From positions 1 through 40,236 of the forward strand of contig JACRIV010000032.1 of assembly GCA_016220005.1 (NCBI GenBank): a stretch of 40,236 nt of DNA. The letters are read 5' to 3'. The stretch's first letter is position 1; each line of letters starts with the position of its first letter. Made by a program: the position numbers and the translations under genes. Below are positions 30,077-34,953 of this stretch, piece after piece. The notes under the pieces were generated by a model that saw nothing but the letters and a program-made list of their open reading frames with translations, searched no databases and was not told the DNA's origin. Source of the DNA: Deltaproteobacteria bacterium (GTDB lineage: Bacteria; Desulfobacterota; Deferrimicrobia; Deferrimicrobiales; Deferrimicrobiaceae).

Positions 30077-31087
30077 TTACGGCGTGAGCACCGCCCGCAG
30101 GCGGACCTGCCCTTTGCGCAGCCTGTCCAGGACCTCGTTGACCTGGTCCAGCGGGTAGTGCTCCACCATCGGGGCGATCCCGTGGTCGGCGGCGAATCGG
30201 AGCATGGCGTCCATGTCGTCCCGGGTCCCGATGACGGAGCCGCAGATGGCTTTCTGGCCCGTGATCAGCCCCGCGGGGATGAGCGAAGCGCTCTCGGCGA
30301 TCGCGGCGAGGACCACCAGCGTTCCGTTGGGACCGAGCCCCGGGATGCACTGCTCGAAGAGCTTCGCGGAGATGCCGGTGAGCAGGATCAGGTCGGCGCC
30401 TCCCATCCGGGAGAGCCGGCTTCCGATCTTCTCCTTCTCCGTGTCGACGACCTCCCGGGCTCCCATTTGCCGGGCGAGGTCGCTCTTCCCTTCCCCTCGG
30501 AGGATGGCCACCACCCGGGCTCCCATCGCCGCCGCCATGCGGAGCGCGAGATGCCCCAGCCCCCCGATTCCCGCCACCGCGACGGTTTTCCCGGCGAGGT
30601 TGCCCGCCCTGCGCAGGGGGGCGAAGACCGTGATCCCCGCGCACAACAGGGGGGCGGCCGTAACGAGGTCCAGCCCCTCCGGTATCCGGTGAGTGAAGGC
30701 CGCGGGCGCCTTGACCCGCTCCGCGTAACCGCCGTTCACCGTGACCCCGGTGCTCTTCTGGCCGGCGCAGAGCATCTCCGCGCCCGAGCGGCAGGGGGCG
30801 CATTGCCCGCACGCGTATTGCATCCAGGGGACTCCCACGGGGTCCCCCGGCTTGAGGCCGGTCACCGCGCTCCCCGACTTCTCGACGACCCCGGTCACTT
30901 CGTGCCCGGGGATGATGGGCAGCGGCGTCCCCCAGTCCTTCCAGTCCCCGTCGACCAAGTGGAGGTCGCTGTGGCAGACCCCGCAGGCCTTGACCCGGAT
31001 CAGCACCTCCTCCGGCCCGATGGAGGGGGCCGGGACGTCCGAGAGGACGAGCGGCTTTCCGAACGCTTCGCAGACGGCGGCTTTCAT
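30077..31087 (-). CDS. Zinc-dependent alcohol dehydrogenase
   Basis: VKACGVCHSDLHLVDGDW...PIIPGHEVTGVVEKSG...CGQCAPCRSGAEMLC; AVAGIGGLGHLALRMAAAMGARVVAI. Confidence 0.94.
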   Translation of the reverse strand: MKAAVCEAFGKPLVLSDVPAPSIGPEEVLIRVKACGVCHSDLHLVDGDWKDWGTPLPIIPGHEVTGVVEKSGSAVTGLKPGDPVGVPWMQYACGQCAPCRSGAEMLCAGQKSTGVTVNGGYAERVKAPAAFTHRIPEGLDLVTAAPLLCAGITVFAPLRRAGNLAGKTVAVAGIGGLGHLALRMAAAMGARVVAILRGEGKSDLARQMGAREVVDTEKEKIGSRLSRMGGADLILLTGISAKLFEQCIPGLGPNGTLVVLAAIAESASLIPAGLITGQKAICGSVIGTRDDMDAMLRFAADHGIAPMVEHYPLDQVNEVLDRLRKGQVRLRAVLTP

Positions 31088-31564
31088 CTAAGTGTCCCCC
31101 GCCAGCTCGGCGATCTCCGCGCTGTCGCTGATCTCGATGGCGCCCATCACGCTCATGGCGCCGGGGCATTTCACGAGGTAGGTCCCGAGCGCCTCGCGGG
31201 CATCCTCCGTCTTCCCCGGAGGGACCTTGAGCGTGTACTTCACCCGGATCTTCGTGATTCTAAGCACCCCTTCGACATCCTCGATGTCCCCCTCGACGTC
31301 GGCCCGGAACCGGTCGGCGAATGTGGGGATCTTCTTTCCGGCCAGCACCGTGGCCAGTGTCCCCATCATTCAGCCGCCCACCGCCCCGACGATGTGGTCG
31401 AGCGTGGCGGCGTGCTCCTTCTCGGGCTCCACCTTGTAGAAATGCTTGATGCCGCCGTGGACGCCGTAGTAGACCGGCTCCGCGAACCCCTCGATGACCG
31501 CCTTCCGCGTCGGCCCCTTCTCGCGGGTCACCACGATCCGAGACGTGTGAACCACCCGGCCCAT
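31088..31564 (-). CDS. OsmC-family peroxiredoxin-like protein with in-frame TGA (31370-31372) at the first catalytic Cys position; candidate selenoprotein
   Basis: Two contiguous same-frame ORFs: ...HAATLDHIVGAVGG-[TGA]-MMGTLATVLAGKKI...LRITKIRVKY...YLVKCPGAMSVMGAIEIS; second OsmC Cys (KCP) intact. Confidence 0.85.
31325..31372 (-). promoter_or_regulatory. Candidate bacterial SECIS downstream of the TGA
   Basis: Minus strand TGA-N12-CTGGCC-ACGGTGCT-GGCCGG (31338-31357; 6-bp stem, 8-nt loop), possible outer stem GGGGA/TCCCC (31360-31364/31325-31329). Confidence 0.5.
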
Positions 31565-31677
31565 GTCGTTCTCCTTTCCCCGTGGTAGTCGCCGCCCGGT
31601 CCTTTTGTTGCCGGGCGGGGCGGGAACGTTTCGGCGGCGTCCTCGCCGCCCCCCGGATACTATGCACCAGACGCCCC

Positions 31678-31815
31678 CTATTCGTCATCCAGCATCCTGT
31701 GCTTCGCACCCTCCACGTCGTCGTACTGGTCGCTGCGGACCGCCCAGACGAACAGGAGCCAGGCGCCGGCGCCAAGGACGATCGAGATGAGGATGAGCAG
31801 CCAGGTCGTCCACAT
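31678..31815 (-). CDS. ccoS: cbb3-type cytochrome oxidase assembly protein CcoS (45 aa)
   Basis: MWTTWLLILISIVLGAGAWLLFVWAVRSDQYDDVEGAKHRMLDDE; missed in the ORF track because of its length. Confidence 0.9.
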   Translation of the reverse strand: MWTTWLLILISIVLGAGAWLLFVWAVRSDQYDDVEGAKHRMLDDE

Positions 31816-31827
31816 CGCTCTTTTCCT

Positions 31828-34245
31828 TTATGCCTTCCTCAATCTCATGGAATTCCCCACCACCATCAGCGAGCTTGCCGCCATGAGGGCCGCAGAGAGG
31901 ATCGGGTGGAGGTTTCCCGAGACCGCGAGGGGGATCGCGACCAGGTTGTAGGAAAAGGCCCACGCCAGGTTCTGGCGGATGACCCTCATGGTCTTCCGGG
32001 AGATCGACAGGAAGCGGGGGATGAGCCGCAGGTCGTTCGTCATCAGGACGGCGTCCGCGCTCTCGAGCGCGATGTCCGTGCCCCTTCCCATGGCCATCCC
32101 GACTCGGGCCTCGGTCAGCGCCGGGGCGTCGTTGACCCCGTCCCCGATCATCATCACCCTGCCTCCCGCGTTCCGCGCCTTGCCGATGATCTCCGCCTTC
32201 TCCACGGGTGTGACCCGGGACTGGACGAGGTCGATCCCCGCCTCCTTCCCGATGCGCGACGCCACCGGCCCGCTGTCCCCGGTGACCATCCGGACGCGAT
32301 AGCCTTCCTTTTTCAGCAGGCGGACCGACTCTTCCGCTTCCCCTCGCAGTTCATCCACGGAGGAGAGCAGGCCCAGGACCTGTTTTTCGTCGGCCAGGAA
32401 GACCGCCGTCCTGCGCGCCTCCGAGATCTCGCGGAACCTCTCCTCCTGGGCGCCGGTGACCGGGACGCCGTTCAGGGAGAGAAACTTGGCATGCCCGAGG
32501 AACAGCCGACGACCGCCGACGATCCCTTCCACTCCCAGACCGGCGTGCGCCTTGAAGGCCGAGACGTCAAGGAGCTCTCCCGGCGCGACGCCGCGGCCGA
32601 TGGCCTTGGCGATCGGGTGCTCGGACGGGGCTTCCAGGGAGGCGGCAAGCCGCAGAACCTCCCGCGGCGCAAGCCCGAAACCGTCCACGTGCGCCAGGCA
32701 CGGCCTGCCGTAGGTCAGCGTCCCGGTCTTGTCGAGGAACACCTCGGTCACCGACGCCCCCGCCTCCAGCACGTCTCCGCCGCGGACGAGGATCCCCTGC
32801 GCGCGGGCCGCGTTCGACCCGATGAAGACGGCCAGGGGGGTCGCCAGCCCCAGGGCGCACGGGCAGGCGACGACCAGCACGGAGATCGCGACAAGGATCG
32901 CACGGAGAGGGGGGTCCCCCCACTGCAGTCTCGCGCCCAGGGTGAGGGCCGCGACGGCGATCACCGCCGGGACGAACCATCCGACCACCCTGTCTGCGTG
33001 GCGCTGGACGGGAGCTTTCCTCGCCTGGGCCTCCTCCACCGCTCTGACGATGCGGGAGAGGACAGTCTCTTTGCCGGTCTGCGTGACGCGGACGACGAGC
33101 CTTCCGCTCCCGTTGACCGTTCCCGTGCAGACCGCACTCCCTTCGCCCTTGGCGACGGGACCGGCTTCGCCCGTGAGCGTCGATTCGTCCGCCTCGGAGG
33201 CCCCCTCGATCACGATCCCGTCCGCCGGGATCTTCTCCCCGGGAACGATCTCGATAATGTCGTTCGCCCGGAGGGACGACACCGGGACCGTTTCGGTCCG
33301 GGGGGCGTGTCCTCCGAAGCCGCTCCCCATCCTTCTCCTCGCCTCGCGGGGGGCCAGGCGGACGAGCCGGCCGATCGATTCCTTTGCCCTGCTCCTGGCG
33401 GCCGCCTCGAGATACCTGCCGAGCAGGATCAGGGTGATGATCATCCCCGCGGTGTCGAAGTAGACCTCCCCGCCGACGACGAGCATCGCGGCACTGTATG
33501 CATAGGCGGAAAAGGAGCCCAGGAAGACCAGGGTGTCCATTCCGGGGGCGCGGTTCCGGATCCCCGCCAGGGTATTACGGAGGAAAGGGTATCCCGAGTA
33601 GAAGATCACCGGCGTGGTGAGCGCGAACGACAGCCACTGGAACCACGCGAGGAATTTCGGCTCGATCCCCTGGAAATATCCCGCGTAGAGCGCGGTGGTG
33701 AAGGTCATGACCTGCATGGAGAGGAAGGCGGCGGTGCCGAACCGGAGCAGCAGGTCGCGTTTCTCCCGGCGCAGGCTCTCTTCGAGCTCCCCGGTTTCGC
33801 AGGGGTGGGGCGCGTACCCAAGCTCCCGGATCCAAGAGGCGATCTCCGCGATGCCTGCCGATCCCGGGCGAAAGCGTATCTTCGCCCGGCCGGTGGCGTG
33901 GTTTACCCGGACGAGGGATACCCCCGGCTTCCGGCCGAGGTACCGCTCGATGACCCACACGCAGGAGGCGCACCGGATCCCGGAGATCGCCAGGGTTGCC
34001 TCATGCTCGCCCTCCCTCTCGACGACGCAATCCGAGAGCGCATCCGGGTCGGCTGCGAAGAGCTCGGGGGGCCCGGGGACCCAACCGGTCCGCCTGCGGT
34101 AGAACTCCGCGAGACCTTGGGCGTGGAGGAGCGCGTAGATGGACCGGCAGCCGGGACAGCAGAAAAAGGCTTCCCTGCCCCCCACCTCCTCGCGGATCGC
34201 GGTGTTCGCGTCGAGGGGGAGGAGGCAGTGTTCACAGGTCGCCAT
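31828..34245 (-). CDS. ccoI: Copper-translocating P1B-type ATPase (CcoI-like)
   Basis: IRCASCVWVIERYLGRKPGV, ACPCALGLATPLA (CPC), FLDKTGTLTYGR, MIGDGVNDAPALTEARVG. Confidence 0.94.
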   Translation of the reverse strand: MATCEHCLLPLDANTAIREEVGGREAFFCCPGCRSIYALLHAQGLAEFYRRRTGWVPGPPELFAADPDALSDCVVEREGEHEATLAISGIRCASCVWVIERYLGRKPGVSLVRVNHATGRAKIRFRPGSAGIAEIASWIRELGYAPHPCETGELEESLRREKRDLLLRFGTAAFLSMQVMTFTTALYAGYFQGIEPKFLAWFQWLSFALTTPVIFYSGYPFLRNTLAGIRNRAPGMDTLVFLGSFSAYAYSAAMLVVGGEVYFDTAGMIITLILLGRYLEAAARSRAKESIGRLVRLAPREARRRMGSGFGGHAPRTETVPVSSLRANDIIEIVPGEKIPADGIVIEGASEADESTLTGEAGPVAKGEGSAVCTGTVNGSGRLVVRVTQTGKETVLSRIVRAVEEAQARKAPVQRHADRVVGWFVPAVIAVAALTLGARLQWGDPPLRAILVAISVLVVACPCALGLATPLAVFIGSNAARAQGILVRGGDVLEAGASVTEVFLDKTGTLTYGRPCLAHVDGFGLAPREVLRLAASLEAPSEHPIAKAIGRGVAPGELLDVSAFKAHAGLGVEGIVGGRRLFLGHAKFLSLNGVPVTGAQEERFREISEARRTAVFLADEKQVLGLLSSVDELRGEAEESVRLLKKEGYRVRMVTGDSGPVASRIGKEAGIDLVQSRVTPVEKAEIIGKARNAGGRVMMIGDGVNDAPALTEARVGMAMGRGTDIALESADAVLMTNDLRLIPRFLSISRKTMRVIRQNLAWAFSYNLVAIPLAVSGNLHPILSAALMAASSLMVVGNSMRLRKA

Positions 34246-34260
34246 GGGTCGGTACTCTCC

Positions 34261-34953
34261 TCAACGCAGCAGGCCCCTGGCGGCGTAGATCCCCCCCAGC
34301 GCGACGAGGAGCAGCGCCGCGATGCGGTACAGCCTGCTCCGCAACCGCCCCCCCAGCAGGCCCGCCGCCTTCCCGATCAGGAGCAGGGAGGGGACCGTCC
34401 CCGCGCCGAAGAGCGCCATCGCCAATAAACCGCGCAGGAACCCCTCCGCGGGGGTCTTTGCCTCCATCCCGACCCTGGCCGCGGACAGCAGGGCGGCGTA
34501 GACGATCCCGCATGGCAGGAATCCGAGGACCATCCCGAGCGGGTAGAAGGCCCCGATCCCTTCCTGGTCCGCAAGGGCGTGGACGATCCTCGGGAAGGGC
34601 TTTGTCGGGTCGAACCTCCCGAAGGCGAAGTCCTTGCGGCCGATCCACCCCCCGATCGCCAGCCCGAGGATCATGATCAGTACCCCCGTTCCGGCCAGGA
34701 CTGCTTTCTGGAACGGCTCGATGGGCACGGCTATCCGCACAAAGGAGCCGCTAAGGCCGACGGCTCCGCCGAGGAGGGCATAGGTGGTCACCCGCCCGAG
34801 GTTGTACAGCGCATGGGGGAGCAGCTCGCCTCTCCGCCCCGGTCCCAGGGCCAAGGCCGCGACGAAGGGGCCGCACATGGCAATGCAATGCCCGAACCCC
34901 CCGAGCAGGCCGGAGGCGAGGAGCACCGCGTAGGTGGAATCAGCGGACCACAT
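34261..34953 (-). CDS. Sulfite exporter TauE/SafE family protein (CcoS/CcoI-associated)
   Basis: LLASGLLGGFGHCIAMCGPFVAALAL...HALYNLGRVTTYALLGGAVGLSG...LGFLPCGIVYAALLSA. Confidence 0.9.
   Translation of the reverse strand: MWSADSTYAVLLASGLLGGFGHCIAMCGPFVAALALGPGRRGELLPHALYNLGRVTTYALLGGAVGLSGSFVRIAVPIEPFQKAVLAGTGVLIMILGLAIGGWIGRKDFAFGRFDPTKPFPRIVHALADQEGIGAFYPLGMVLGFLPCGIVYAALLSAARVGMEAKTPAEGFLRGLLAMALFGAGTVPSLLLIGKAAGLLGGRLRSRLYRIAALLLVALGGIYAARGLLR

What the first reader, a model, noticed from the sequence alone, without database searches (positions are those of the whole stretch)
31325..31372. bSECIS-like hairpin directly downstream of the OsmC TGA
On the minus strand the TGA is followed by ATGATGGGGACA and then CTGGCC-ACGGTGCT-GGCCGG: a 6-bp stem (one U-G) with a GGU-containing 8-nt loop starting ~19 nt after the UGA. 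A further GGGGA/TCCCC pairing can close an outer stem. Known bacterial SECIS elements place a small apical loop with a conserved G about 16-37 nt after the UGA, so the geometry fits.
Basis: partly seen in the sequence, partly recalled or inferred. Interest (0 to 1): 0.7.

Follow-up and report, generated by a model that had tools for sequence, protein, structure and literature searches.

The report
Selenocysteine signal in OsmC gene
The small RNA hairpin just after an in-frame "stop" codon is very probably a genuine signal telling the ribosome to insert the rare amino acid selenocysteine, making this gene one redox enzyme rather than two broken ones; its family carries selenocysteine in every near full-length relative found, and current annotation models miss it.

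Summary
Confirmed, with corrections. On the minus strand, the TGA at 31372-31370 sits exactly at the catalytic-Cys position of an OsmC/Ohr-fold protein (158 residues, 31564-31088). The downstream hairpin (31357-31338; 7 bp, loop CGGUGC starting 19 nt after the UGA) meets every published bSECIS criterion. On one sequence it is weak evidence (p = 0.13 against synonymous codon choice), but comparison is decisive. All 64 distinct close homologues carry TGA, never TAA, TAG or Cys. Synonymous codons are frozen only at codons 70-75, the hairpin itself. The stem is 96.6% paired, with a C-G to U-A swap in several lineages and one G-C to C-G flip. The genome has tRNA-Sec, selA and selB; selD was not found in this 91%-complete assembly. 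OsmC-like selenoproteins are already known (UxxT type, NCBIfam NF041052), but this is a different, apparently Sec-only subfamily (UxxG) that no NCBIfam model recognises. Unexpectedly, the sister clade keeps the same UGA but has its hairpin two codons further downstream, with its own covariation. No experiment has shown Sec insertion.

The parts
31088..31564 (-). Predicted Sec-containing OsmC-family gene, 158 residues with U65, read through one TGA (stop codon included)
   Evidence: Translation with TGA=U; Pfam OsmC PF02566 E 5.6e-9; AlphaFold2 mean pLDDT 94.9; Foldseek best hit an OsmC-family structure, 2onf, TMt 0.84
31370..31372 (-). In-frame UGA, predicted Sec65, at the OsmC catalytic-Cys position
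   Evidence: TGA in all 64 distinct UMMG-clade members and in all 35 members, against 20 TGA, 16 TAA and 6 TAG at the terminal stops of 42 of them
31338..31357 (-). bSECIS hairpin, 7-bp stem (31357-31351 with 31344-31338)
   Evidence: Hairpin alone -10.4 kcal/mol; 96.6% of cells paired with covariation; synonymous constraint at codons 70-75 only
31345..31350 (-). Apical loop CGGUGC; fits the N1-G-[G/U]-N-N2 pattern (C-G-G-U-G)
   Evidence: G[G/U] near the start of the loop in 57 of 58 distinct sequences, against 48.2 +/- 1.6 expected from synonymous recoding; pattern as given in PMC13188914
31324..31329 (-).
31360..31365 (-). 5' arm of the outer stem (UGGGGA); same caveat

Best explanation
The hairpin at 31357-31338 is a bacterial SECIS element. 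When the mRNA is translated, SelB carrying Sec-tRNA-Sec binds the GG-containing apical loop and decodes the UGA at 31372-31370 as selenocysteine, so that 31564-31088 gives one 158-residue OsmC-fold protein with Sec65 in place of the peroxidatic Cys and the invariant Cys133 as partner (resolving) residue. Shown by computation: one conserved frame across a strictly conserved TGA, a constrained and covarying hairpin, Sec machinery in the genome, an OsmC fold. Inferred from established bacterial Sec biology: SelB binding and Sec insertion. Inferred from the OsmC/Ohr family: hydroperoxide or related thiol-dependent reduction as the activity.
For: TGA only, in 42 of 42 first-set sequences (41 loci and the window), against mixed terminal stops of 20 TGA, 16 TAA, 6 TAG. 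No Cys orthologue: of 395 genomes of the own phylum all near full-length matches carry a TGA, and so do all 32 near full-length matches in 396 genomes of the phylum of L041. Synonymous codon identity exceeds expectation by +0.25 to +0.54 at codons 70-75 and by about 0 elsewhere. Stem 96.6% paired, covariation 0.256 against 0.193 +/- 0.008 shuffled, 0 of 500 shuffles as high; sliding the partner gives at most 51% paired. U16-A35 for C16-G35 needs 5 label changes on the protein tree, at least 3 forced by well-supported branches; C18-G33 for G18-C33 arose once. The synonymous Leu codon tracks the partner: TTG with A35 6 of 6; CTG with G35 46, A35 4, C35 3. 60 of 62 hairpins fold at or below -7.5 kcal/mol. 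Own genome: tRNA-Sec 75.6 bits, selB 308.5 bits, selA 570 bits. Independent second case in the sister clade.
Against: No experiment. selD not found in the 90.7%-complete own assembly, although 19 of its 25 class relatives have one above cut-off. In isolation the window hairpin is not exceptional for its peptide and codon usage (p = 0.13). In 9 of 62 homologues the minimum-energy fold of +4..+39 prefers another pairing. The basal pair 16-35 is broken in 9 of 58 sequences.
Confidence: 0.96

Rival explanations
1. The UGA is a real stop and the AUGAUG that follows starts a second, translationally coupled reading frame (termination-reinitiation), giving two polypeptides of a split OsmC.
For: AUG directly follows the UGA in all 58 distinct UMMG-clade segments, and the second frame alone is a 93-residue ORF.
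Against: Most of the sister clade has CUG at that codon. TGA is never replaced by TAA or TAG. The cut would fall inside the central helix (residues 54-76 of a 94.9-pLDDT model), exactly on the catalytic residue. It does not explain a covarying hairpin 12-32 nt downstream with a GG loop, or its confinement to codons 70-75.
Confidence: 0.02
2. The hairpin is a by-product of coding: the peptide LATVLAG written in GC-rich codons gives CTGGCC...CTGGCCGG, which self-pairs because GGCC is palindromic.
For: The single-sequence synonymous test gives p = 0.13; synonymous recodings still keep 5.5 of 7 pairs on average.
Against: Observed 6.76 of 7 pairs, above all 500 recodings. Ala71 is GCC in 60 of 64 genes, against 371 of 783 elsewhere in the same genes; Leu70 is never CTC, CTT, CTA or TTA. 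The synonymous CTG to TTG switch follows the partner base.
Confidence: 0.01
3. The TGA is a nonsense mutation or sequencing error in an OsmC pseudogene.
For: None beyond the stop itself.
Against: The same TGA in independent assemblies of many genera and several phyla, with no other internal stop, no length change, and purifying selection on the protein.
Confidence: 0.005

Closest known systems
Bacterial SECIS (bSECIS) consensus model, as summarised in PMC13188914
   Same: Loop of 6 nt (3-9 allowed), stem of 7 bp (4-16), G in the first two loop positions followed by G, loop 19 nt after the UGA (16-37), -10.4 kcal/mol (limit -7.5).
   Different: Nothing that falls outside the model. The basal pair is variable, and an outer stem is not conserved.
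OsmC-like selenoprotein, UxxT type (PMC1088965, PMC2398784; NCBIfam NF041052 OsmC_like_Se)
   Same: Pfam OsmC, Sec at the catalytic-Cys position, bacterial SECIS downstream; bacterial and from environmental sequence.
   Different: Motif U-M-M-G here against UxxT there (for example U-L-L-T in L109). P0001 does not match NF041052 at E <= 0.1. The UxxT family profile also matches many Cys proteins in the phylum, whereas no Cys orthologue of the present subfamily was found.
OsmC / Ohr peroxiredoxin-like proteins with Cys (E. coli OsmC 1qwi and 1nye, Ohr 6ebg and others)
   Same: Fold (TMt 0.66-0.84) and position of the two redox residues (C65 equivalent and C133; the profile aligns both with 1qwi).
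   Different: About 10-20% sequence identity; Sec in place of the first Cys.

Membership tests
bSECIS element | Apical loop of 3-9 nt and upper stem of 4-16 bp | tested here: met
   6 nt and 7 bp; criteria from PMC13188914
bSECIS element | G in the first two loop positions, usually N1-G-[G/U]-N-N2 | tested here: met
   CGGUGC in the window; G at loop position 1 or 2 in 55 of 58 distinct sequences, G[G/U] in 57 of 58
bSECIS element | 16-37 nt from the UGA to the loop | tested here: met
   19 nt
bSECIS element | Free energy at or below -7.5 kcal/mol | tested here: met
   -10.4 for the hairpin alone; 60 of 62 homologues pass
bSECIS element | Acceptance by the bSECISearch program | not testable with these tools
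   Program not available; only its published constraints were applied by hand
bSECIS element | Bound by SelB and needed for UGA decoding | not testable with these tools
   Needs an experiment
Bacterial selenoprotein | UGA aligned with a conserved functional Cys of homologues | tested here: met
   Position 65 aligns with the first OsmC Cys in the profile match to 1qwi; Cys homologues L103 and L105 have GGC-L at that place
Bacterial selenoprotein | Sec machinery in the genome (selA, selB, tRNA-Sec, selD) | tested here: inconclusive
   selA, selB and tRNA-Sec met; selD not found in the 91%-complete assembly but present in 19 of 25 class relatives
OsmC family (PF02566) | Score above Pfam's gathering cut-off and OsmC fold | tested here: met
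   36.8 bits against 27.5; Foldseek hits all OsmC or Ohr at the top
NF041052 OsmC_like_Se (UxxT type) | Score above the curated cut-off of 95 bits | tested here: not met
   P0001 has no match at E <= 0.1; the sister-clade protein L041 scores 15.4 bits
NF041052 OsmC_like_Se (UxxT type) | UxxT motif | tested here: not met
   U-M-M-G-T

The most novel reading that the evidence does not exclude
A Sec-only OsmC subfamily, distinct from the known UxxT family, in which the SECIS element has changed register during evolution: the same UGA is served by a hairpin at +16..+35 (GG at +24,+25) in the UMMG clade and by a different hairpin at +22..+40 (GG at +30,+31), two codons further 3', in the mostly acidobacterial sister lineages, each with its own covariation.
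Probability: 0.75. Interest if true: 0.55.

Novelty: new member of a known kind. Interest (0 to 1): 0.45.

Why it matters
It turns two apparent ORFs (64 and 93 residues) into one selenoenzyme, in a subfamily that NCBIfam's existing OsmC selenoprotein model does not recognise, so the gene is likely to be split in annotations. The apparent absence of any Cys orthologue is unusual, since nearly all selenoproteins are said to have Cys homologues (PMC13188914), and suggests a reaction that needs selenium. The two SECIS registers on one conserved UGA give a natural experiment on how a coding-region recoding signal can move while the protein stays aligned, and on what spacing SelB tolerates.

Tried and rejected
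Rfam scan of 30900-32000: no relevant match; the only one, a weak frameshift-element hit on the + strand (E 3.2), was rejected as chance. A single-sequence P0001 search of the PDB found nothing real; the profile found E. coli OsmC. Outer GGGGA/TCCCC stem tested and rejected as a family feature. The UMMG-clade hairpin was tested on the sister clade and rejected there (49.8% paired, covariation at shuffled level), which led to the second register. selA presence does not discriminate well: it is common in the phylum with or without this gene, though the three class members without selA also lack the gene. Gene neighbourhood gives no conserved operon.

Full report
Observation. Against dinucleotide shuffles the 54-nt segment has z = -3.9. 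That control ignores the protein; against synonymous recoding of the same peptide the window alone reaches only p = 0.13. The claim therefore rests on comparison.

Reading frame. Reading TGA as Sec joins a 64-residue and a 93-residue ORF into one 158-residue protein with Pfam OsmC above its cut-off. AlphaFold2 on 60 family members gives mean pLDDT 94.9, with residue 65 in the middle of the long helix 54-76 and Cys133 at the break between helices 119-132 and 134-139. Foldseek's top hits are all OsmC or Ohr proteins. The profile aligns C65 and C133 with the two redox Cys of E. coli OsmC. C65 and C133 are invariant in the alignment, as are R20, D56 and others (Sec is printed as C there).

The UGA is strictly conserved. 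41 loci plus the window: 42 TGA at this codon, while terminal stops are 20 TGA, 16 TAA and 6 TAG. In all, 81 of 82 loci in which the codon could be located have TGA, the exception being a distant Cys protein at 34% identity (some loci are repeats of one genome). In 395 genomes of the own phylum every near full-length match has a TGA; in 396 genomes of the phylum of L041 (recorded as Acidobacteriota) all 32 near full-length matches do. Proteins without the stop appear only as distant or partial matches. Sampling was limited to these two phyla and one genome per species.

Synonymous constraint. For 64 UMMG-clade genes (1930 pairs under 80% identity), the excess of identical codons over expectation is +0.54, +0.53, +0.46, +0.25, +0.54 and +0.37 at codons 70-75, and averages -0.001 (s.d. 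0.07) outside codons 65-80. These six codons are +16 to +33 from the U of UGA; the stem is +16 to +35. Ala71 is GCC in 60 of 64, Leu70 CTG or TTG only.

Covariation. Seven pairs are 96.6% formed in 58 distinct sequences; the covariation score exceeds all 500 shuffles, and sliding the partner drops pairing to 51% or less. Related sequences can beat such shuffles without structure, so the tree matters: U-A for C-G at 16-35 needs 5 changes, at least 3 forced by well-supported branches; C-G for G-C at 18-33 arose once, in the Desulfatitalea group. The measure 'pairs with a change on both sides' (2) is not above its shuffles, because five of the seven pairs are fixed or vary on one side only; the case rests on the counts, the tree and the synonymous test together. 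Leu70 is TTG only when the partner is A35 (6 of 6), CTG mostly with G35 (46 of 53).

The outer stem GGGGA/TCCCC is present in the window's near relatives only, and its codons show no synonymous constraint.

Machinery. The own genome has tRNA-Sec (75.6 bits), selB and selA. selD was not found; 19 of the 25 class relatives have one above cut-off, almost all with a TGA of their own. With 90.7% completeness the gap is most simply an assembly gap, but that is inference. 24 of 25 gene-bearing genomes elsewhere in the phylum have selA, as do 14 of 15 sampled through other loci.

Sister clade. Related proteins with motifs such as U-L-T-G or U-L-L-G (L041, L043, L044, L102, L124-L152) also all have TGA, but the UMMG-clade hairpin is not formed there (49.8% paired, no covariation). 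Instead an 8-bp stem at 22-29/33-40 with apical UGGAA or UGGAG is 91.1% paired, with four pairs changed on both sides (3 of 500 shuffles) and covariation above all shuffles; mean 7.29 of 8 pairs against 5.22 +/- 0.19 for synonymous recodings. Pair 27-35 is the clearest: the third base of codon 73 is A with GTG (Val) and G with GCG (Ala) at codon 76, 31 of 31 paired. The UMMG clade is one group (100/99) inside these lineages, so the hairpin moved by two codons probably once, with the sister register likely older; rooting is weak because the Cys outgroups are very distant. Both registers satisfy the 16-37 nt rule.

Known or new. OsmC-like selenoproteins were reported from the Sargasso Sea and GOS data (PMC1088965, PMC2398784) and are listed with motif UxxT in a 2026 review (PMC13188914). 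NCBIfam has NF041052 for them. P0001 does not match that model, whose phylum members carry U-L-L-T (L109). None of the 119 families in the review's table has this motif with PF02566. The library held is partial (no subscription papers), so an earlier mention cannot be excluded; the Olavius algarvensis study of 2007 is one I could not read, and L027 comes from such a symbiont.

Function. By family, a thiol or selenol peroxidase acting on organic hydroperoxides is most likely (inference). Weak support from neighbours: Rrf2-type regulator genes lie next to it in seven loci, a MarR-type regulator in two, rubrerythrin in two (not all members of each cluster were scanned). In the window it lies between a CcoI-like copper ATPase (31828-34245) and a Zn alcohol dehydrogenase (30077-31087).

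Noticed in passing
L041, L043, L044, L102, L124-L152: Sister clade of the OsmC selenoprotein with the same UGA but a SECIS hairpin two codons further 3' (pairs 22-40 to 29-33, GGA apex), with its own covariation.
   Followed up: yes
L120 (G000:C118:37906-38289): The own genome holds another OsmC-family protein without a TGA, with a Cys in the motif LGSCLAV.
   Followed up: partly
Class relatives G001-G025: selD in most relatives is itself interrupted by one TGA, that is, a probable Sec-containing SelD; two different such copies appear in some genomes (G007, G008, G009, G022).
   Followed up: no
L016, L023, L026, L032, L078, L085, L088: A gene cluster whose representative is an Rrf2-type regulator lies beside the OsmC selenoprotein gene in seven loci, hinting at redox or iron-sulphur control.
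   Followed up: partly
L009, L011: Nearly identical genes in assemblies labelled Opitutaceae and Acidobacteria; the former genome shows no selA, so its label or binning is doubtful.
   Followed up: no
window 31582-34428 (+): A 948-residue ORF antisense to the copper ATPase gene, probably a GC-rich shadow ORF rather than a gene.
   Followed up: no
window 31815-31678 (-): Small ORF MWTTWLLILISIVLGAGAWLLFVWAVRSDQYDDVEGAKHRMLDDE, which looks by eye like CcoS next to the CcoI-like ATPase; my Pfam query for it used the wrong frame and found nothing.
   Followed up: no
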